Positions 1 to 61,446 of a stretch of DNA of 64,000 bases are shown in pieces. A program made the translations under genes and the position numbers. Under the pieces are notes generated by a model. It ran no database searches. It worked only from the letters and a program-made list of their open reading frames with translations, and was not told where the DNA came from. The DNA lies in assembly GCF_002929845.1 (NCBI RefSeq), contig NZ_PJJS01000039.1, forward strand, positions 1 to 64,000. The letters run 5' to 3'. The stretch is from Cryobacterium sp. M96 (lineage in GTDB: Bacteria; Actinomycetota; Actinomycetes; Actinomycetales; Microbacteriaceae). The stretch's first letter is position 1. Each line of letters begins with the position of its first letter.

Positions 1-80
1 GCTACAATCACCACAGACCCCATACCGGCATCGGCGGCAAATCACCCATCAACCGTGCTCACAACGTCAGTGGGAACAAC
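1..80 (+). pseudogene. C-terminal tail of an IS481-type transposase (runs off the left edge)
   Basis: Read from base 3, the plus strand encodes YNHHRPHTGIGGKSPINRAH, the conserved C-terminal end of IS481-family integrase-type transposases. After NVSGNN the frame runs into a palindrome instead of the expected stop, so the tail is rearranged. A second copy of the same tail lies on the minus strand at about 6266-6490, so the two tails face each other across 6 kb. Only the end of the gene is in the window; the upstream part may be intact or not. Confidence 0.75.
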
Positions 81-108
81 AAATGTTGGTCCCACCGACG
101 TTGTGAGC
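57..108. repeat. Near-perfect palindrome at the junction of two IS481 tails
   Basis: Bases 57-80 and 85-108 form 24-bp inverted arms (22 of 24 match) around the loop AAAT. The left arm encodes the ...RAHNVSGNN end of the IS481 tail on the plus strand. The right arm encodes ...DRAHNVGGTN on the minus strand. The structure is therefore two transposase tails joined tail to tail. As RNA it would fold into a strong hairpin and could stop transcription from either side, including from the minus-strand SDR gene at 154-981. Confidence 0.7.
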
Positions 109-153
109 GCGATCGGGGGGAACAACACCTAGCCCTCGGTAGGGGCTGGTCTA

Positions 154-981
154 CTAGATGCTGCGGTGGTCGCGTACCGCAAGTTCAAGGGCCTCGAGGC
201 CGGGCGCGAGGGCGGCATCCACCGCCATCGGATCGGTGATATTAAGTTGCTGCATCTCGCGACGACTCTCCGGTGCGGTGTTGATTTCATGTTCGCCAGC
301 CTCGAGCGCAGCGATGAGGTCGGTGATGACGTCCTCGAGCGGTCGACGTCCCCACCCGAGCTCGGCACCGGCGGTCTGTGAGGTCATCATCGCCGTGTCG
401 GTCGCGCCCGGATAGACGGTTGCCACATGCACACCCGTTCCGATCAACTCTCGGCGAAGCGACTCGCCAAACTGCGAAATACCCGATTTCGTTGCAGCAT
501 AGATCGAGTAGAACGGCATGCCGACGAGCGCAATCCCGCTTGAGATGTTCACAAGGATGCTGCCGCGTTCTTTCCCGCTGTGCCGAAGCGCGGGAAGCAG
601 GGTCTTGGTCAACAGAATCGGAGCAGTGAGATTCAGATCGATCATCGAGTGGACATCCGCATCGCTTGTCAATTCGAGCCTGCCCGCGCGCACATTTCCG
701 GCGTTATTGACGAGAAGATCAACGATGCTCCACGACGAGACCAAGTCTGCGATCCGCTCAACAGCGCCAGGCTGAGTTAAGTCTTCAACCAGGACCTCAG
801 TGGTTCCGCCTTTGGCGGCCACGAGCCGCGCAGTTTCTGCGAGAGTGTCCAACTGCCGACCGACGAGCAGCAGATGACCCCCACGGCGACCAAATTCGAG
901 GGCGAGTGCCCGACCAATGCCCTGCCCCGCGCCCGTGATGATTCCGTGCCTTTTGGTGAGGTCCAAATTACTGAGATCCAT
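154..981 (-). CDS. Short-chain dehydrogenase/reductase (classical SDR)
   Basis: A 275-residue protein with the classical SDR layout. The N-terminal Rossmann motif TGAGQGIG is at residues 16-23, NNAG at the end of beta-4, the catalytic Ser in NISSG, and the catalytic pair YAATK. It would be a cytosolic NAD(P)-dependent oxidoreductase; the substrate cannot be read from the sequence. The ATG start at 981 is preceded by a GGAAAG-type ribosome site. It lies between the IS481 tail palindrome and an IS30 element and has no obvious operon partner. The family call is firm; a specific function is not. Confidence 0.9.
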   Translation of the reverse strand: MDLSNLDLTKRHGIITGAGQGIGRALALEFGRRGGHLLLVGRQLDTLAETARLVAAKGGTTEVLVEDLTQPGAVERIADLVSSWSIVDLLVNNAGNVRAGRLELTSDADVHSMIDLNLTAPILLTKTLLPALRHSGKERGSILVNISSGIALVGMPFYSIYAATKSGISQFGESLRRELIGTGVHVATVYPGATDTAMMTSQTAGAELGWGRRPLEDVITDLIAALEAGEHEINTAPESRREMQQLNITDPMAVDAALAPGLEALELAVRDHRSI

Positions 982-1101
982 GGACTGGCTACTTTCCGTT
1001 GATTGTGACTGGCTGACGGCAGCGGGTATCTCCGACTACTCTCAGACGTACTTCCACCACAACCGGACACCACCGTCTTTTATTCACGATCCAGCGACCG
1101 C

Positions 1102-1278
1102 TTATCCCAATGTCACCGGGGCAACCTGCAGAGTCTCGTTGCTGATCTGACCGAGGCAACCGATAGACAGCCATTGCTCCGGCGGCCGCGTCTTTGGTTG
1201 GGGGTCTGACCAGTAATGGAACGGTACCGAGGCTACGTCCGCGATGCTCGGCCGCAGCCCCACCGTCTCATATCCCAT
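1102..1278 (-). pseudogene. Short hypothetical ORF cut by the IS30 left end
   Basis: The minus strand between the SDR gene and the IS30 element holds an open frame of 58 codons ending in TAA at 1102-1104. Its composition is protein-like (it contains PFHYWSDPQPKTRPPEQWLS). The same frame stays open upstream of the ATG at 1276-1278, right up to the IS30 left end near 1283, so this is probably the 3' end of a longer gene whose 5' part was removed by the insertion. I do not recognise the family. It could also be a chance open frame. Confidence 0.35.
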
Positions 1279-1282
1279 GGGT

Positions 1283-2531
1283 GGCGAGTTCAGGTGGTGA
1301 GAGCAACACCCTGAGTTCTGTGGGGTGTTGTCGATGGCTCGACCGTGGTCGCCTTTGAGCGTCCGTTTGTCGTTTTGGGATGGGCTGGACGCGGGGCTAT
1401 CGGTGGCCGTCGCGGCGCAGGCTGCTGGGGTGTCGCGACCGACTGGGTATCGTTGGTCAAGCCAGCATCAGAAGGTGCTGCCATCACCGGTTCAGGATTT
1501 CAGTGTTGCCCGTGCCGGACTCTTATCGTTGCGAGAGCGCGAAGAGATCGGATTCCAGCTCGCCCGCGGTCAAGGGGTGCGCCGCATCGCCGCGGCTCTG
1601 GGCCGGGCGCCATCAACGATCAGCCGGGAGGTGGCCAGAAACAAGGTCACTGGCCGCTACGTGCCGTCGCTCGCGCAGGAGCAAACCTGGGCGCGGGCTC
1701 GCCGGCCCAGAGCCCAGAAGCTGGACGGGTTAGCGTTACGGGAACAGGTCACCACGATGCTCACCGATCGGTTCAGCCCGGAACAAGTCGCGGGCCGACT
1801 GAAAGTCGAGCATCCGGAGAATCCGGAGATGCAGGTGTCACACGAGACGATCTACCAGGCCCTCTACGTGCAGGGCCGCGGATCGTTGCGCCTGGAAGTT
1901 GCCACCGCGTTGCGCTCAGGGCGCGTAACACGGCGGCCGCAGAGGCCGGAGGGTCCGCGGCCGCAGAGATTCCGGGAGATGGTGATGATCTCCGACCGCC
2001 CGCTGGAGATCGAGGACCGCGCCGTTCCTGGGCACTGGGAGGGCGACCTGATCATCGGCTCGACCTCGTCGAAGTCCGCGATCGGAACACTCGTCGAACG
2101 GACCACGGGATACGTGATGCTGCTGCATCTGCCCGGGGATCACACCGCTCGCACGGTGGCCGACGCGATGATCGTCGCGATGAACACTCTCCCGGAACAG
2201 CTGCGCCGTTCGACCACCTGGGATCAGGGAGCGGAGATGTCCCGACACCAGGAAATCACGATGGCGACCGGGATGCCGATCTATTTCTGCGATCCGCACT
2301 CGCCCTGGCAGCGTGGCAGCAACGAGAACACCAACGGGCTCCTGCGCGAGTACTTTCCGAAGGGTACCGACCTGTCCTTCCACGGGCCCGGGATACTGGA
2401 AAACGTTGCCGCGGAGCTCAACCGCCGGCCCCGCAAACGCCATGGCTACCGAACGCCCGCAGAAGTCCTCGCCACGCTAATCTCGAACCCAACAAATCAA
2501 ACCGGTGTTGCAGACACCACTTGAATCCGCC
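1283..2531 (+). mobile_element. IS30-family insertion sequence, copy 1
   Basis: The element is bounded by imperfect 28-bp inverted repeats at 1283-1310 and 2504-2531 (22 of 28 positions match; outer part GGCG..TTCA.GTGGTG, inner end GCAACACC). It contains one transposase gene that fills almost the whole element, and the right repeat overlaps its stop codon. Total length of about 1.25 kb is normal for IS30. I could not identify a target-site duplication with certainty, so the outer ends may be off by a few bases. Confidence 0.75.
1325..2524 (+). CDS. IS30-family transposase
   Basis: Up to 399 residues. The N-terminal part has helix-turn-helix segments (VAAQAAGVSRPTGYRW, and IAAALGRAPSTISREVARN at about 80-100). 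The C-terminal DDE catalytic core follows: first Asp in HWEGDLIIGS, second Asp in TTWDQGAEM, and Glu in WQRGSNENTNGLLREYFPKG. VSHETIYQALYVQ is also an IS30 hallmark. The start could be GTG 1325 or ATG 1334. The frame is intact, so the enzyme may be functional. It is related to, but clearly not a recent duplicate of, the transposase at 8603-9784. Confidence 0.93.
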   Translation: MLSMARPWSPLSVRLSFWDGLDAGLSVAVAAQAAGVSRPTGYRWSSQHQKVLPSPVQDFSVARAGLLSLREREEIGFQLARGQGVRRIAAALGRAPSTISREVARNKVTGRYVPSLAQEQTWARARRPRAQKLDGLALREQVTTMLTDRFSPEQVAGRLKVEHPENPEMQVSHETIYQALYVQGRGSLRLEVATALRSGRVTRRPQRPEGPRPQRFREMVMISDRPLEIEDRAVPGHWEGDLIIGSTSSKSAIGTLVERTTGYVMLLHLPGDHTARTVADAMIVAMNTLPEQLRRSTTWDQGAEMSRHQEITMATGMPIYFCDPHSPWQRGSNENTNGLLREYFPKGTDLSFHGPGILENVAAELNRRPRKRHGYRTPAEVLATLISNPTNQTGVADTT

Positions 2532-2717
2532 GGTTTTGAGGCGCGTAGGTTACGAGACACTTCGCCTATAGACCGGATCGCTATGAGGGAGGGCTCCGCG
2601 TCCAATTCTCAGAGTCCCGCAAGAGGAACCCGCTACAGGAGGCATCACCGAGGCATGACGAATCGCTATGCCGTGCCGTCCTCAGTGGTGGAATTATCAT
2701 GTGGCAGGCTCTATGGA

Positions 2718-3227
2718 ATGACTGCTCATGAAATTCCCGCCGCTTCGCCCGACACCGAGGCAGGCGCGGCGTTGTGGGTTGCCTACGCCGCAGCTCGTCC
2801 TGATGCCGTGCGAACCTGCCCCGAGTACACCGTGGAGCACTTCGGCGACTCGGTGCGCTTGGCCGACGAACTGCTGCGGGATGTTACTCACGGAGCTAAG
2901 CGGGCCACTGCGGAGCTCGCCGCCGCGTTCGCCGCAGACGGCGACAAATTGCCCAGAATCGGCTCGCACTGGATCGCTTGTGACAGCACGGGAGCCCCGC
3001 GCATTATCGTGCGCAGCACCGAATTTCGCCTGGGCACGTTCAGCAGCGCCGACGAATCATTCGCATGGGATGAGGGCGAGGACGACCGCTCTCTGGCCAG
3101 CTGGCGGAGCCAGCACGCGAAATACTGGACTCGTACTTGCGCCGCGCGAGGCGCCGTCTGGAGCGAGGACGACGAGATCGTATACGAGCGATTCCGCGTT
3201 GTGTGGCCGCTCGCCTTGGCCGACTGA
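2718..3227 (+). CDS. ASCH domain-containing protein
   Basis: A 169-residue protein. After an N-terminal helix-rich part (about residues 1-60) comes the ASCH fold: KRATAELAA, then PRIGSHWIACDSTGAPRIIV, then the typical DESFAWDEGEDDRSLASW segment and WSEDDEIVYERFRVVWP at the end. ASCH proteins are PUA-like beta-barrel proteins believed to bind RNA, and some hydrolyse modified nucleosides; the substrate here is unknown. The frame is open upstream into the IS30 right end, but the ASCH protein itself begins at ATG 2718. It stands alone between IS30 and a decayed gene. Confidence 0.85.
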   Translation: MTAHEIPAASPDTEAGAALWVAYAAARPDAVRTCPEYTVEHFGDSVRLADELLRDVTHGAKRATAELAAAFAADGDKLPRIGSHWIACDSTGAPRIIVRSTEFRLGTFSSADESFAWDEGEDDRSLASWRSQHAKYWTRTCAARGAVWSEDDEIVYERFRVVWPLALAD

Positions 3228-3299
3228 AGTGTAAGACATGCCTTCACCTCAACGTGAGTGTGTCCCGCAAACGGTTCGCTCGGACGAGGTGGGAAGAAA

Positions 3300-3682
3300 C
3301 TACGCGGCGAGGCGTCAGCTGACTCGCTCTCTGGTACGTCTGAAGATTCACAAACGCCAGTCCTTCGCCCAACAATAGAACGATCGTGACCCCTTCAGGC
3401 GGCTTGGACGACGCCGCGTTAGCCGGAGGTCGCTCGAACCACAAGCTCGGCGCCTCCTCCCTGCCTGTAACACATCGAGGCGGCGCTGAGCGCCGCCCGG
3501 GCTTCGCACCCGTGCATGTCCAGGCAGTACGCGCATCCATTGATCTGCGACGCGTGAATTTTCACCAGCGCCGGCAGAGCTTCACCCAGGTTTCCCGCGT
3601 GGATGTATTTCTCTAGGGCGAACATCGGTTTCTAGGCCTCGGGATCGACATCACCGACGGAGAGGCGTTGCTCAAATGACAT
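3300..3682 (-). pseudogene. Carboxymuconolactone decarboxylase / AhpD-like gene, broken
   Basis: The gene would start at ATG 3682 after a GAAAGG ribosome site. It reads MSFEQRLSVGDVDPEA, then hits TAG at 3632-3634, where relatives have a Tyr (TAC/TAT), then continues in the same frame with KPMFALEKYIHAGNLGEALP. The family signature follows: ASQINGCAYCLDMHGCEARA, with the redox CxxC. About 45 bases later the similarity moves to another frame (RRLDVLQAGREEAP), so there is also a frameshift near 3490. It lies 50 bases downstream of the alpha/beta hydrolase on the same strand, a common pairing. The exact 3' end is uncertain. Confidence 0.8.
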
Positions 3683-3732
3683 TGTCGTTACCTTTCTGTC
3701 AGTGTTCATGGTGCTTGTACGTAGAGCGACCG

Positions 3733-4635
3733 CTATTGCGCATGTCGTCCGATGAAGTCATCGATCAGATGCGCAACGGTGTCCAGCTGCTCATCCAAGG
3801 CGAAGTGCCCGGTGTCAAGCAGGTGCAGCTCAGCAGCGGGAAGATCATCGAGGTATGCTCGTGCGCCTGCTTCAGAGAAGAACTGATCGTTGCGCCCCCA
3901 AGGCACAAGCATGGGGGGCTGATGTTCGCGCATCCACGCTTGCCACGCTGGATACAACACAACGTTGGACTGGTAGTCATAGAGCAGGTCGAGCATGATC
4001 TGGTCTCGCCCGGATTGATCGAGCCAGTGCTGATCCAAAGTCCATGAGTCAGGATCGACGAGCTCTGGGTGCGCGGTCCCTTCGAGATGCTGGGAGCGCG
4101 TCGCCGCAGCTGTTAGCGCTCCGCGGATAGCGGTCTCCACCCCCTCTTGATCTGCCCAGTACCGAACCACAGACTGCATATTCGGCCCCAGCCCCGCCTC
4201 GTAGGCGTTGCCATTTTGCGCGATGACCCCCTGTATCCAATCCGGATGTCGCGCCGCGATGCGATACCCGATAGGAGCGCCAAAGTCGAAAACGTACATG
4301 AAGAACGCGTCAATGTTAAGGGTCACCAGAAACGCTTCGACGACCTCGGCAATGTGATCAAAAGAGTAAACAAAGTCACCGCCGCCGGTGCTCGAGGCAG
4401 GAGCGCTGCTGTAACCGAACCCCGGATAATCCGGTGCGATGAGATGCACCCGGTCGCTGAGCCGATCCATCAGGCGCGCGTACTGGTGCGACGCAGCAGG
4501 GAACCCATGCAAAAGCACGAGCGTCGGCCCATCCACCGGACCCGCTTCCCGATAGAAGATCTCCAACCCATCGACTGTGACAGTGCGATGCCGCACCCCC
4601 GTGAGCTGATCAGTTTCCGTGGTGAATTCGGCCAT
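3733..4635 (-). CDS. Alpha/beta hydrolase with Asp nucleophile (epoxide hydrolase / haloalkane dehalogenase-like)
   Basis: A 300-residue single-domain alpha/beta hydrolase. The oxyanion motif HGFP is at residues 43-46. The nucleophile elbow reads VFDFGAPIG, which places Asp117 where esterases have Ser, as in epoxide hydrolases and haloalkane dehalogenases. Asp250 (GRNDQFF) and His277 (DTGHFALDE) complete the likely triad. No signal peptide is seen, so it should be cytosolic. The ATG at 4635 follows a GAGGA ribosome site. It probably formed an operon with the now broken carboxymuconolactone-decarboxylase-like gene. The substrate is unknown. Confidence 0.88.
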   Translation of the reverse strand: MAEFTTETDQLTGVRHRTVTVDGLEIFYREAGPVDGPTLVLLHGFPAASHQYARLMDRLSDRVHLIAPDYPGFGYSSAPASSTGGGDFVYSFDHIAEVVEAFLVTLNIDAFFMYVFDFGAPIGYRIAARHPDWIQGVIAQNGNAYEAGLGPNMQSVVRYWADQEGVETAIRGALTAAATRSQHLEGTAHPELVDPDSWTLDQHWLDQSGRDQIMLDLLYDYQSNVVLYPAWQAWMREHQPPMLVPWGRNDQFFSEAGARAYLDDLPAAELHLLDTGHFALDEQLDTVAHLIDDFIGRHAQ

Positions 4636-5253
4636 ACTGTCCTCGTTTCGCCTGCTTGTAACTACAATTCAGACTTTCACCCGCGGTACTTCATGTCAAC
4701 ACGCCCACAAAGTGGTGCCATTTCGCTCTCCCAGACGAGATAGAAGATGACCACGTTTACCCCCCAACTCACCTCTACCCGGACTGCGGCGTACACCGTA
4801 ATCGACCTCACAACTGACACGCGAGCCACCGACCTGATGTAATGTTCGGCTTCACTTCAGCGTCCATCGTCATCATCTGCGCCATGTCCGGGTCAGGATT
4901 ACTGACCCGACTGGATCGTCGAGCTAGCAGCAACAGTTCACTCGGACTGAGTCGGAGAACGCACCTATCTGACAAGGTCGTGGGGCTGGTCTCGACCTCT
5001 TGAGTGCGCACGGTCTTTAATATCTTTGACGTGAACGGTGACACCCAACTCGCGTATCGTCTGCCCATCGACCAAGCCGATCCACTACCACCGATGGCGT
5101 CCACTTTAACCCGTGTCTGCCCGTGCCAGGACGGCGGTGTCAGCCACCGTTCCCGCGAATGTCGCCATCTGATCCGTGGTCGTTTTCCAAGACTGCCGAC
5201 AATCACAGAGGTGCTCACGCTCGCCGTTTGTCTGCATTGGTGGTCACGAATGG
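4636..5253. other. 618-base stretch with no recognised gene
   Basis: A 136-codon minus-strand frame and shorter plus-strand frames exist here, but none resembles a known family, has a convincing ribosome site, or keeps protein-like composition along its length. Stops interrupt the alternative frames. It is most likely decayed DNA between the hydrolase and DUF2945/DUF488 genes, apart from the promoter of the hydrolase at its left end. Confidence 0.5.
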
Positions 5254-5463
5254 CTAGATTTTCGTCAGGGCCTCGCCCTTATGCATCGCCACGTGGTCGG
5301 TCGTGTCGCTCGTGATCTCGTACTGCGGATCATCGGGACTGCAGCGGTGAGTGTGCCCTTTGTATTCCACGTCTATCGTATGAATTTTCGCGATGGTGCC
5401 GTGCACATGGCCGGCCTCGGAGTTCCAGCGCACGTGATCGCCGACTGAGAATTTTTTTGTCAT
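5254..5463 (-). CDS. DUF2945 (TUDOR-like, HVA1-type) small protein
   Basis: A 69-residue protein starting MTKKFSVGDHVRWNSEAGHV. The pattern GDHVRWNSEAG...GTI, IHTIDVEYKGHTHRCSPDDPQYEI and a C-terminal DHVAMHKGEALTKI is typical of DUF2945. The family is annotated after a fungal hypervirulence-associated protein but has no established bacterial role. The start at 5463 was chosen because the domain begins there and GGAAGG lies about 8 bases upstream. It directly follows the DUF488 gene, with an 86-base gap, and the two are probably co-transcribed. Confidence 0.88.
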   Translation of the reverse strand: MTKKFSVGDHVRWNSEAGHVHGTIAKIHTIDVEYKGHTHRCSPDDPQYEITSDTTDHVAMHKGEALTKI

Positions 5464-5549
5464 TGGTATGCCTTCCACTGCCATAATCTTGCTGGATCTT
5501 TCGAGCGTATTCGCTGCACCATCTTGCTTCGAATTGGCACCCTCGGGTT

Positions 5550-6101
5550 TCACCCTTCCGGTGGATACCAGAGGCGGTTACCATCGACTTTCGCGAAGCT
5601 GGTGAGGGTGTGGGGCTTGGTCGAGGTCAGGCTCATGATGTCGGCAACCTGCAGACCGCGAGCCAGCAACGCGTCTCCGATCAGTGATCGGTGACAACGC
5701 CAGGGCACGGCCTCGGCACACATGATCGCCACCGTCTGCTTCTTCGTCAGCGCCACCAACTCGTCAACGCCGGCAACGAACTCGGGCGTTTGCATGTAGT
5801 CGGCGTAGTTGCGGAAGCTTCTGTTACGCCACGCTCCGTTGATAGATGCTTCTGCCGCCGGAGTATGCCGTAACCCGCCTAGCTCGGGAAGTCGCTGATA
5901 CTCAATACCTGCCTCCGGCATGCTTGTGTCGAGTTCGTGCTCCCCAAATTGTGGGTTGTGACGAGACCCGGGAACGGTGCGAACGTCGATGAGTCGTTCG
6001 ACACCATTTGCTTTCAACATTCCAACGAACTCATCAACGGGATGAGTGGAATGCCCGATCGTGCACACACAGATTCCAGCCATACTCCCATTGAACCGCA
6101 C
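5550..6101 (-). CDS. DUF488 domain protein
   Basis: 183 residues from the GTG at 6101, or 177 from the in-frame ATG at 6083; neither has a strong ribosome site. DUF488 features are present from end to end: CTIGHSTHPVDEFVGMLK at the N-terminus, LIDVRTVPGSRHNPQF, the LGGLRH segment, and the conserved IMCAEAVPWRCHRSLIGDAL near the C-terminus with its two Cys and the CHR motif. Its biochemical role is not established. It sits upstream of the DUF2945 gene on the same strand. Confidence 0.9.
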   Translation of the reverse strand: MRFNGSMAGICVCTIGHSTHPVDEFVGMLKANGVERLIDVRTVPGSRHNPQFGEHELDTSMPEAGIEYQRLPELGGLRHTPAAEASINGAWRNRSFRNYADYMQTPEFVAGVDELVALTKKQTVAIMCAEAVPWRCHRSLIGDALLARGLQVADIMSLTSTKPHTLTSFAKVDGNRLWYPPEG

Positions 6102-6265
6102 GTGCTGAAGCCCGCATCAGAAATGTCAGATTTATGCGCCCGACACTCGGCTCCGCGATAAAGGGCGCAGCCTCGTATGGTGGCATCGCTCTGTTGCCGT
6201 CCTGAAGCCATCGGTAACCTGATCAGTGACGAAGCTTCTTCGTTCCAGCCCGCCGGTTCACGCGG

Positions 6266-6490
6266 AAAAGGTGTTGTTCCCTTTGACGTTGTGAGCACGG
6301 TCGATGGGTGATTTGCCGCCGATGCCGGTATGCGGTCTGTGGTCTGTGGTCTGTGGTCTGTGGTCTGTGGTCTGTGGTCTGTGGTCTGTGGTCTGTGGTC
6401 TGTGGTCTGTGGTCTGTGGTGATTGTAGCTATGGATCCAGTCTTGGTAGGTGGGACAGATCGATGCCCGTAGTACTCGTTGAATCAGGGC
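6266..6490 (-). pseudogene. Remnant of IS481-type transposase C-terminus, interrupted by a 7-bp repeat array
   Basis: The minus strand reads TYQDWIHSYNHHRP, then a tandem repeat array, then IGGKSPIDRAHNVKGNNT after a frame change. This is the same transposase tail as at bases 1-80 but in the opposite orientation. Expansion of one 7-bp unit inside the HHRPHTG codons to 12 copies adds 77 bases, which is not a multiple of three, so the frame is destroyed. The fragment abuts the decayed transaldolase gene, which it appears to have truncated. Confidence 0.75.
6334..6417 (+). repeat. 7-bp tandem repeat, 12 perfect copies of GGTCTGT
   Basis: Twelve uninterrupted copies of GGTCTGT (ACAGACC on the other strand) occupy 84 bases. 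The other IS481 tail, at the left edge of the window, has a single unit at the same codons, so the array arose by expansion of one unit inside the transposase tail. Arrays of this type change length by slipped-strand mispairing. A 7-base unit shifts the reading frame with each copy gained or lost. Confidence 0.95.
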
Positions 6491-38573: not shown

Positions 38574-38653
38574 CGAATTCGACGGAGAATTTCGGGAAAT
38601 GGCAGGTTTCCGGCTGTCCGTGGCCGATACAGGCAAAATCTCCGTCGAATTCG
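38574..38653. repeat. Dispersed palindromic repeat, copy A
   Basis: Perfect 15-bp terminal inverted repeats CGAATTCGACGGAGA at 38574-38588 and their complement at 38639-38653 enclose about 50 bases. The element lies in the era-leuA intergenic region, with no ORF. A second copy with the same ends and length lies at 61359-61446. The core shares GGCAAAATCTCCGTC and the layout but is otherwise diverged. Confidence 0.9.
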
Positions 38654-48714: not shown

Positions 48715-50562
48715 CTACTTCTTCTTCGGGGGCTCGTCACCGGACAGGGCGGCGATGAACGCCTCCTGGGGAACCTCGACCCGGCCGACCATCTTCATGC
48801 GCTTCTTGCCCTCCTTCTGCTTCTCCAGCAGCTTGCGCTTGCGGGAGATGTCGCCGCCGTAGCACTTGGCGAGAACATCCTTGCGGATGGCACTGATGGA
48901 CTCGCGGGCGATGATGCGGGCGCCGATCGCGGCCTGGATGGGCACGTCGAACTGCTGGCGCGGGATGAGCTTGCGCAGCCTTCCCGTCATCAGCACGCCG
49001 TAGTCGTAGGCCTTGTCGCGGTGCACAATCGCGCTGAACGCGTCGACCTGTTCGCCCTGCAGCAGGATGTCGACCTTGACCAGGTCGGCCTCCTGAGAGC
49101 CGATGGGTTCGTAGTCGAGCGAGCCGTAGCCGGCGGTGCGGCTCTTGAGATTGTCGAAGAAGTCGAACACGATCTCACCGAGCGGCATCGTGTAGCGGAT
49201 CTCGACCCGGTCCTCGCCGAGGTAGTCCATGCCGAGCAGGGTGCCGCGGCGGCTCTGGCAGAGCTCCATGATCACGCCGACGTAGTCCTTGGGTGCGAGG
49301 ATGGCCGCCTTCACGATCGGCTCCTCGACCTTGGCGATCTTCCCGTTCGGGAACTCGCTCGGGTTGGTGACCGTGACAGACTTCTTGTCGTCGGTGGTGA
49401 CCTCGTAGATCACACTGGGCGCCGTGGTGATCAGGTCGAGGCCGAACTCCCGGTCGAGCCGCTCGGTGATGATTTCCAGGTGCAGCAGCCCGAGGAAACC
49501 ACAGCGGAAACCGAAACCGAGGGCGACGGATGTCTCGGGCTCGTACACGAGGGACGCGTCGGAGAGTTTGAGCTTGTCGAGGGCCTCCCGGAGGGCCGGG
49601 TAGTCGCTGCCGTCGATCGGGTAGAGGCCCGAGAAGACCATGGGCTTCGGCTCGGTGTAGCCCGGAAGGGCGACGGTGGCGGGGCGGAGCGCGGTGGTCA
49701 CCGTGTCGCCGACCTTCGACTGGCGCACATCCTTCACGCCCGTGATCAGGTAGCCGACCTCGCCGACGCCGAGGCCCTTGCTGGTGGTGGGCTCGGGCGA
49801 GGTGACGCCGATCTCGAGGATCTCGTGCGTGGCACGGGTCGACATCATCTGGATCTTCTCGCGCGGGCCCAGCTTGCCGTCGATCATGCGCACATAGGTG
49901 ACGACGCCACGGTAGCTGTCGTAGACCGAGTCGAAGATCATCGCGCGGGCCGGGGCGGCCGGGTCGCCGACCGGGGCCGGGATGAGGCGGGTGGCGCGGT
50001 CGAGGAGTTCGGCGACACCGACACCGGTCTTGCCGGAAACCCGGAGCACGTCGTCGGGACTGCCACCGATCAGGCTGGCGAGCTCCTTCGCGTATTTGTC
50101 GGGGTCGGCAGCCGGCAGGTCGATCTTGTTCAGCACCGGGATGATGGTGAGGTCGTTCTCCAGCGCCAGGTAGAGGTTGGCGAGGGTCTGCGCCTCGATC
50201 CCCTGGGCGGCGTCGACGAGGAGGATTGCTCCCTCGCACGCGGCCAGGCTGCGAGACACCTCGTAGGTGAAGTCCACGTGGCCGGGGGTGTCGATCATGT
50301 TCAGGGCGTAGGTCTGCCCGTCGAGTTCCCACGGCATACGAACGGCCTGGCTTTTGATGGTGATGCCGCGCTCGCGCTCGATGTCCATCCGGTCAAGGTA
50401 TTGGGCGCGCATCGAACGGTCATCGACGACGCCGGTGATCTGCAGCATCCGGTCGGCCAACGTGGACTTGCCGTGGTCGATGTGGGCGATGATGCAGAAA
50501 TTGCGGATGAACTCGGGCGGGGTGGCGGCCGGTTCAAGCGCCGTGAGGGGTCTCGGTGACAT
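48715..50562 (-). CDS. lepA: Elongation factor 4 (LepA)
   Basis: 615 residues from ATG 50562 ([11 protein letters not shown]); the frame to 50697 lies in a repeat region and is not coding. G1 is [10 protein letters not shown]2/G3 [12 protein letters not shown], and G4 [11 protein letters not shown]. The C-terminal domain unique to LepA ends with [16 protein letters not shown]. It is a ribosome-associated translational GTPase at the membrane, thought to act on stalled ribosomes. Confidence 0.96.
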
Positions 50563-50664
50563 GGTCTTGCAATTCTCCCATAGGTGGCTGGGTCCCGGTT
50601 TCGCCGTTGCCGCGCATCGTTCCAGGCTTGCGCGCGGGAACGGCCGCGCCCGGCGGCTCGCAGC

Positions 50665-50703
50665 GAACCACTGCCGTGAACCACTGCCGTGAACCACTGC
50701 CGT
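50665..50703. repeat. 13-bp tandem repeat, three copies
   Basis: Three perfect copies of GAACCACTGCCGT lie upstream of lepA. They are followed after about 20 bases by the inverted-repeat element at 50722-50829. Confidence 0.9.
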
Positions 50704-50721: not shown

Positions 50722-50829
50722 GTGGCCAATTCAGGAGATCCGACCGGGCGAGGCCGGACATCCGCACCGGTTCCGCACTGGTCCGCGGTGGCCCGGCCAC
50801 CCGTGCGACGGATGTCCTGAGTTGGCCAC
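50722..50829. repeat. 108-bp element with 21-bp inverted ends
   Basis: GTGGCCAATTCAGGAGATCC... at 50722-50742 is inverted at 50809-50829 with two mismatches. The core is about 66 bases and GC-rich, without an ORF. It lies in the intergenic region between lepA and the alpha/beta hydrolase. It resembles a MITE or a palindromic repeat. Its ends differ from those of the element at 38574/61359. Confidence 0.8.
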
Positions 50830-61358: not shown

Positions 61359-61446
61359 CGAACGAATTCGACGGAGATTCTCCGGAAAACGGCTTTTCCC
61401 GTGTGTCTGCGCCCGATCCGGGCAAAATCTCCGTCGAATTCGTTCG
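61359..61446. repeat. Dispersed palindromic repeat, copy B
   Basis: Terminal inverted repeats of about 20 bp (outer CGAACGAATTCGACGGAGAT) at about 61359-61379 and 61426-61446 enclose a 46-base core. The 15-bp CGAATTCGACGGAGA is identical to that of copy A at 38574-38653. It lies between pabB and the M28 peptidase gene. The ORF pieces that it contains on both strands are chance translations of the repeat. Confidence 0.9.

What the first reader, a model, noticed from the sequence alone, without database searches (positions are those of the whole stretch)
38574..38653. Palindromic repeat with conserved 15-bp ends, present twice 23 kb apart
Perfect inverted repeats CGAATTCGACGGAGA flank a ~50-base core here and at 61359-61446. 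The ends are identical between the copies, but the cores differ (TTTCGGGAAATGG... versus CTCCGGAAAACGG...). Both lie in intergenic spaces. Conserved ends with a drifting core are what a non-autonomous mobile element (MITE-like or REPIN-like) would show, and copy number across the genome could be high. No transposase with such ends is in the window.
Basis: partly seen in the sequence, partly recalled or inferred. Interest (0 to 1): 0.75.

Follow-up and report, generated by a model that had tools for sequence, protein, structure and literature searches.

The report
Helically phased palindromic repeats in Cryobacterium
A bacterium of a cold-loving genus carries over a hundred copies of an 81-letter DNA module whose two ends hardly ever change while its middle changes freely yet keeps a ten-letter rhythm expected to bend DNA, which points to an unknown protein that clamps and bends the gaps behind genes.

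Summary
The genome (3.30 Mb, Cryobacterium) holds 280 arm matches (15-mer, up to 1 mismatch; control 0), about 140 elements; 13 of 57 genomes of the genus, own included, have exact pairs. Of 106 distinct elements in fetched own stretches, 90 span 81 bp and 101 span 80-82. Arms are near-invariant. Cores differ widely but alternate A/T and G/C blocks every 10 bp (z=52); the phase score is positive in 203 of 203 81-bp elements. No hairpin covariation was found. Two other arm families show lengths in helical-turn steps. Elements sit behind genes (50 convergent, 36 codirectional, 5 divergent). RAYT (PF01797): 0 of 57 genomes. No autonomous copy was seen in fetched loci. In nine orthologous copies not chosen for exact arms, arms differ at 6 of 234 positions, cores by 20-39%. 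I read it as a DNA-level module: two protein sites on a pre-bent spacer whose length must fit the helix. The protein and the cellular role are not shown; in-place selection on the rhythm was tested and not shown. The MITE/REPIN idea is partly right in layout and copy number.

The parts
38574..38653 (.). family A element, copy 1 (80 bp): arms 38574-38588 and 38639-38653, phased core between
   Evidence: orthologous copy in C. breve (L161), absent in three relatives
61363..61442 (.). family A element, copy 2 (80 bp): arms 61363-61377 and 61428-61442; perfect inverted repeat extends to 61359-61446
50722..50829 (.). family E element (108 bp) with unrelated arms GTGGCYAACTCAGGA / TCCTGAGTTRGCCAC; same general layout, core not part of the 81-bp design
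   Evidence: (arms with 1 and 0 mismatches), sequence printed; lies after the ORF 48715-50697(-) start side and before 50874

Best explanation
A double-stranded DNA module. Each arm is a sequence-specific protein site; the core of about 40 bp is a pre-bent spacer with A/T blocks every 10 bp that lets the proteins on both arms meet on one face of the helix, as a tight clamp or mini-loop, so its length must fit the helical repeat. Copies lie behind genes and are kept by selection on the arms; they reached these gaps occasionally, in this lineage partly inside a longer repeat. SHOWN: copy number, fixed length, near-invariant arms, phased cores, position behind genes, further arm families with length steps of about one helical turn, low arm divergence in orthologs. 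INFERRED: that one protein (or pair) holds both arms, that the DNA is bent in the cell, and that the effect is a boundary between neighbouring transcription units (supercoiling or read-through).
For: Length: 90 of 106 own elements span 81, 101 span 80-82; three of the others (88, 89, 90 bp) carry what look like insertion-sequence scars, one relative element is 91. Rhythm: period-10 A/T power z=52, phase coherence 0.974 in 90 own elements; same profile in 113 elements of other species (r=0.98), phase score positive in 203 of 203; predicted net bend 49 vs 22 degrees after core shuffling (wedge values recalled). No RNA signal: mirror pairs 0.320 complementary vs 0.341 expected; fold z=-0.40 against A/T-G/C-preserving randomisation, 60 of 90 elements. 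Arms: 92 of 106 exact in both inner 13-mers, the other 14 with one one-sided mismatch; nine orthologs not chosen for exact arms: 6 of 234 arm positions differ, cores 20-39%, while core and flank diverge alike, both 24.3% in 76 pairs. Second family C, other arms, same 81-bp rhythm (10 elements, z=24) and a second length class: of 75 listed places 20 span 80-81, 54 span 91-94, 1 spans 89. Family E: 9 at 96-97, 26 at 106-108, 1 at 118, 4 longer. Context: 50 convergent, 36 codirectional, 5 divergent. Family C sits in the same slot in three other species.
Against: No binding protein identified. In-place selection on the rhythm not shown: 56 of 80 polarised state-changing substitutions weaken it, 80% expected if neutral, interval of the mean effect includes neutrality; the share of substitutions that keep the A/T-or-G/C state is lower in cores (0.291) than in flanks (0.376). 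A perfectly phased ancestor followed by drift is not strictly excluded. The 92-bp class of family C is only weakly periodic (z=3.7) and family E at 106-107 bp not at all. Copy number varies strongly between species, odd for a needed host site. The nine orthologs still had to be found, six of them with at most 3 mismatches per arm.
Confidence: 0.45

Rival explanations
1. Selfish miniature transposon: the arms are transposase ends; in so short an element the ends can pair only if the spacer bends and has the right helical phase, so only phased copies move, and cores drift after insertion.
For: Copy numbers differ between species; presence/absence at orthologous places; a longer module-carrying repeat has 15 places at E<0.001 here, none in five relatives; phase looks near-neutral in place. 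Precedent: Paramecium IES sizes show a 10-bp periodicity ascribed to helical phasing (PMC3408717, passage).
Against: No transposase partner: PF01797 0 of 57; no arm pair 500-4000 bp apart in fetched loci. No exact 81-bp insertion with target duplication. Arms intact in old orthologous copies. Very few near-identical pairs of copies: 17 of 4005 own pairs at 75% core identity or more.
Confidence: 0.3
2. RNA element: the arms pair in mRNA as a 3' hairpin that ends or stabilises transcripts.
For: Position behind genes, median 66 bp from 3' ends of flanking genes, own and other species pooled; in relatives lacking one element four carry a GC-rich inverted repeat in the same gap, in two others another hairpin replaces copy 1.
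Against: Arm mismatches are one-sided, not compensated; no covariation or extra folding in the core; an RNA does not explain a 10-bp rhythm; no Rfam match in the window besides two tRNAs. Terminator-substitution test uninformative.
Confidence: 0.12
3. A gyrase (topoisomerase) wrapping site, comparable to BIME-2.
For: The 130-bp gyrase motif has phased G/C content linked to wrapping (PMC12393610, passages); convergent gaps would need it.
Against: There the periodic parts flank a 36-bp centre, here the centre is periodic; near-invariant arms of unrelated sequence in different families suggest specific proteins.
Confidence: 0.08

Closest known systems
REPINs (REP doublets of Pseudomonas, moved by RAYT transposases)
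   Same: Two conserved inverted ends about 70-80 bp apart, less conserved spacer of constant length, intergenic, high copy (PMC3116915, passages).
   Different: No RAYT in 57 genomes; no compensatory changes in the core, which that paper reports as common; 10-bp rhythm; arms almost always paired.
Prokaryotic MITEs, e.g. Correia elements
   Same: Terminal inverted repeats, intergenic, under 500 bp; Correia elements can bind the bending protein IHF (PMC10969869, passages; PMC2649163, start of abstract in listing).
   Different: No target duplication or parent IS found; length rigid; core sequence not shared between copies.
Paramecium internal eliminated sequences
   Same: Short DNA segments whose sizes step by one helical turn, ascribed to helical phasing of ends (PMC3408717, passage).
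   Different: Eukaryotic, excised from the genome; here 3' gaps of a bacterium; comparison is of principle only.
BIME-2 / strong gyrase sites
   Same: Behind genes (recalled); phased G/C content (PMC12393610, passages).
   Different: Different layout of the periodic part; specific arms; no binding data.

Membership tests
REPIN | inverted conserved ends with constant-length, less conserved spacer | tested here: met
REPIN | RAYT (Y1_Tnp) gene in genome | tested here: not met
   PF01797: own genome none at E<=1 (control rang in 10 of 14); 0 of 57 at E<=0.001 (control 5 of 14)
REPIN | spacer forms hairpin with compensatory changes | tested here: not met
   mirror pairs 0.320 vs 0.341 expected; no helix in all-pairs scan
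MITE | terminal inverted repeats, short, non-coding, multicopy | tested here: met
MITE | target-site duplication at insertion | tested here: inconclusive
   no clean 81-bp empty site; own-only insert of about 240 bp at L256 flanked by a 5-bp repeat that chance can give
MITE | parent transposon with matching ends | tested here: inconclusive
   none among arms 500-4000 bp apart in fetched loci; whole genomes not scanned for this
Rfam RNA family | match at gathering score | tested here: not met
   window: only two tRNAs
gyrase site | gyrase binding or cleavage | not testable with these tools
   needs cleavage mapping

The most novel reading that the evidence does not exclude
Cryobacterium carries a class of interchangeable DNA-clamp modules: several arm families, each with its own DNA-binding protein, share one mechanical design (two sites a fitting number of helical turns apart on bendable DNA) and act as boundaries in the gaps behind genes, so that one family can replace another in the same gap.
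Probability: 0.3. Interest if true: 0.85.

Novelty: new variant of a known kind. Interest (0 to 1): 0.68.

Why it matters
Short interspersed palindromes are usually explained by RNA hairpins or RAYT transposases; neither fits here. The composition rhythm and the helical-turn length steps give a mechanical hypothesis that simple binding tests with 5-bp and 10-bp spacer changes can decide. If right, bacterial 3' gaps hold a selectable DNA-mechanics signal, and each such genome offers a natural library of a hundred or more short bent sequences.

Tried and rejected
REPIN/RAYT membership: rejected. RNA structure of the core: not supported. One search compared phase scores of orthologs in both directions; its 'observed change 0' is trivial by symmetry, so I discard that test; the polarised test did not show in-place selection on the rhythm; median core identity of own copies (0.439) equals independent draws from the base profile (0.439) but nearest neighbours are closer (0.671 vs 0.585), so some shared descent remains. 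Terminator substitution: gaps with and without elements had similar low hairpin rates (3 of 47 and 2 of 33 against 1 of 18 and 6 of 92), uninformative. Slot reuse: 11 of 20 'absent' intervals (gap 45-450 bp) hold another inverted repeat of arm 10 or more, against 55 of 349 control gaps; the 20 come from about nine distinct slots by my own grouping, 4 of 9 meeting the criterion, so this is suggestive only. Viral contigs: 0 for families A and C. G060 of another genus has 16+17 arm matches but 0 pairs at 40-70 bp spacing: unexplained. Family B-like elements were seen, not analysed; the loose B arm mostly caught family A elements.

Rows dropped: and one search use the 81-bp own elements with full 30-bp flanks (90; RNA folding the first 60); profiles 71 asymmetric and lists 16 symmetric, 3 of neither type left out; one search uses 76 of 133 present/present pairs (equal length, core divergence at most 0.42, flank pieces over 55% identical); one search uses 10 orthogroups and 117 singleton changes; one search counts 91 of 102 own elements (9 overlap a gene call, 2 lack a neighbour) and its background gaps include element gaps and 30 loci of other genera. 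The pattern allowed spans of 68-98 bp only, its listing stops in the 13th genome, and the 75 places are all those listed.

Literature: the searches listed no paper on such repeats in Cryobacterium; in PMC7381226 (passages) 'palindromic' refers to CRISPR. PMC12306157 and PMC3733652 (passages) do not name the genus; PMC1525189 (abstract) reports IS elements that target REPs. Most subscription journals are not held.

Full report
WHAT IS THERE. The two copies are as described: exact 15-bp inverted ends, 80 bp over all, identical ends, different cores, intergenic. In the genome (3,296,130 bases, 54 contigs) the arm occurs 145 times forward and 135 times reverse with up to one mismatch, control 0, and 18 pairs are exact on both sides. 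In the own stretches fetched I found 106 distinct paired elements: 90 of 81 bp, 6 of 80, 5 of 82, and one each of 83, 88, 89, 90 and 125; 92 have both inner 13-mers exact, 14 have one mismatch on one side. The 88-, 89- and 90-bp ones contain short pieces that resemble the ends of an insertion sequence. The record titles of relatives with exact pairs name Cryobacterium. Of 57 genomes of the genus, 13 including this one have exact pairs, 2 to 38 each; exact pairs undercount, as the 18 here show. In 398 genomes of the family the single arm is at 0-4 per strand outside the genus, except one genome with 16+17 that has no pairs at 40-70 bp spacing.

THE CORE HAS A RHYTHM. Aligned without gaps, the inner arm columns are 97-100% identical in 71 asymmetric elements, while core columns have weak base consensus but clear A/T columns near 26, 36, 46 and 56 with G/C columns between. 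A/T power at period 10 exceeds within-sequence shuffles by z=52, phase coherence 0.974, n=90. The profile is mirror-symmetric (r=0.88), matches that of 113 elements of other species (r=0.98), and the phase score is positive in 203 of 203 81-bp elements. Predicted net bend is 49 degrees against 22 for shuffled cores and 18 for window 53-mers (wedge values recalled). There is no sign of RNA structure in the core: mirror pairs are 0.320 complementary against 0.341 expected, an all-pairs scan shows no helix, and folding energy is z=-0.40 against sequences with the same A/T-G/C pattern (60 of 90).

OTHER FAMILIES. A different arm, GCATAACTCCTGCA (family C), forms exact pairs in 41 of 57 genomes, none in this one, although one own copy with two arm mismatches was seen (L009). 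Of the 75 places listed, 20 span 80-81, 54 span 91-94, one 89. Ten fetched 81-bp copies show the family A rhythm (z=24 at period 10); the 92-bp class is only weakly periodic (z=3.7, 18 copies) and carries a central CCGGAATTCCGG-like box. A third arm, GTGGCYAACTCAGGA (family E), gives 40 distinct elements in fetched loci, 17 of them own: 9 of 96-97 bp, 26 of 106-108, 1 of 118, 4 longer; the window copy is 50722-50829. Its 106- and 107-bp classes show no period-10 rhythm, the 108-bp class a weak one (z=4.6). So the 81-bp rhythm belongs to A and C81; length steps of about one turn appear in C and E.

WHERE THEY SIT. With a codon-usage gene caller, 91 own elements fall in 50 convergent, 36 codirectional and 5 divergent gaps; other species give 33, 53 and 6. 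Gaps of 100 bp or more in all fetched loci number 137, 351 and 129. The median distance to flanking 3' ends is 66 bp (own and other pooled). Asymmetric elements in codirectional gaps show no preferred orientation (13 same, 14 opposite).

EVOLUTION IN PLACE. Flanks identify 133 distinct orthologous pairs, 111 of equal length. In 76 usable pairs core and flank diverge alike (24.3% each). Arms there were mostly ascertained as exact. The fairer sample is nine orthologs, three found by synteny and six incidental (these with at most 3 mismatches per arm by the way they were scanned): 6 mismatches in 234 arm positions, cores 20-39% different. A profile scan of the fetched loci found no decayed full copy: of 35 full hits in relatives that are not exact pairs, 32 have 0-2 arm mismatches, one is truncated at a contig end and two are a diverged variant in L317. 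The rhythm, in contrast, is not shown to be under selection in place: 56 of 80 state-changing substitutions weaken it against 80% expected, and the mean effect (-0.21, interval -0.31 to -0.12) includes the neutral value -0.29; state-keeping substitutions are fewer in cores than in flanks (0.291 vs 0.376).

GAIN, LOSS, REPLACEMENT. In one 20-kb stretch with three own elements, the first is absent from four relatives, where about 240 own bases are missing (the fifth relative is not assembled across it); the second is shared with C. sinapicolor (arms intact, core 8 of 41 different); the third is shared with a metagenome-assembled genome, and four relatives have a GC-rich inverted repeat in that gap. 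Copy 1 of the window is shared with C. breve, absent in three relatives whose gap is about 150 bases shorter, and replaced by another hairpin in two. At one slot three species carry a family C element where this genome has family A, and at another C. breve carries a family B-like one. Some own copies lie in a longer repeat whose left block of about 105 bp has 15 places at E<0.001 here and none in five relatives; one place lacks the module (L336). This shows lineage-specific spread of a module-carrying repeat, not transposition of the 81-bp unit itself.

INTERPRETATION. Near-invariant arms with one-sided, uncompensated mismatches point to sequence-specific recognition of DNA. A spacer with free base identity but fixed length and phased composition points to a mechanical role. 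Together they suggest a protein that holds both arms and bends the spacer. Position behind genes and arm constraint in place favour a cellular boundary role (0.45); a selfish element whose short length forces helical phasing is the main rival (0.3), with Paramecium IESs as precedent (PMC3408717, passage). The nearest bacterial parallel is the REPIN (PMC3116915, passages), but its transposase and its compensated hairpin are missing. The names era and leuA for the genes beside copy 1 are my reading of the translations and come from no family search.

Noticed in passing
own loci L190, L192, L194, L245, L248, L264, L267, L276; L197:7593, L202:2475, L241:8025: Eight unpaired arms end within the element in a sequence starting GGCTC(T/C)CC near contig ends, and three intact elements of 88-90 bp hold short pieces like it: an insertion sequence (ISL3-like by recollection) seems to target the arm/core border and to leave scars.
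   Followed up: partly
L191:2554 and window 1-6429: A different insertion-sequence end (GTTGTTCCCACTGACGTTGTGAGCAC) interrupts one element; the window's first 6.4 kb is bounded by inverted copies of similar sequence.
   Followed up: no
window 50722-50829: A copy of the third palindromic family (E), 108 bp.
   Followed up: partly
L336 (G000:C33:155394): A copy of the long repeat without the 81-bp module; the left flank joins the right arm at a 7-bp CGTCGAA shared by both.
   Followed up: partly
L317:2778 and L317:2902: Two neighbouring 81-bp elements with altered outer arms, a diverged variant of family A.
   Followed up: no
genome G060 (another genus of the family): 16+17 single-arm matches with up to 1 mismatch but no pairs at 40-70 bp spacing.
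   Followed up: partly
L064:7779, L065:5702, L010:2436, L157:2141, L278:9750: Family B-like palindromes (GGAGATTTTCGCGACAC...), about 55-63 bp, picked up as weak profile hits.
   Followed up: no
window 6313-6441: Tandem 14-bp-stepped GGTCTGT repeats near an inverted copy of the window start.
   Followed up: no
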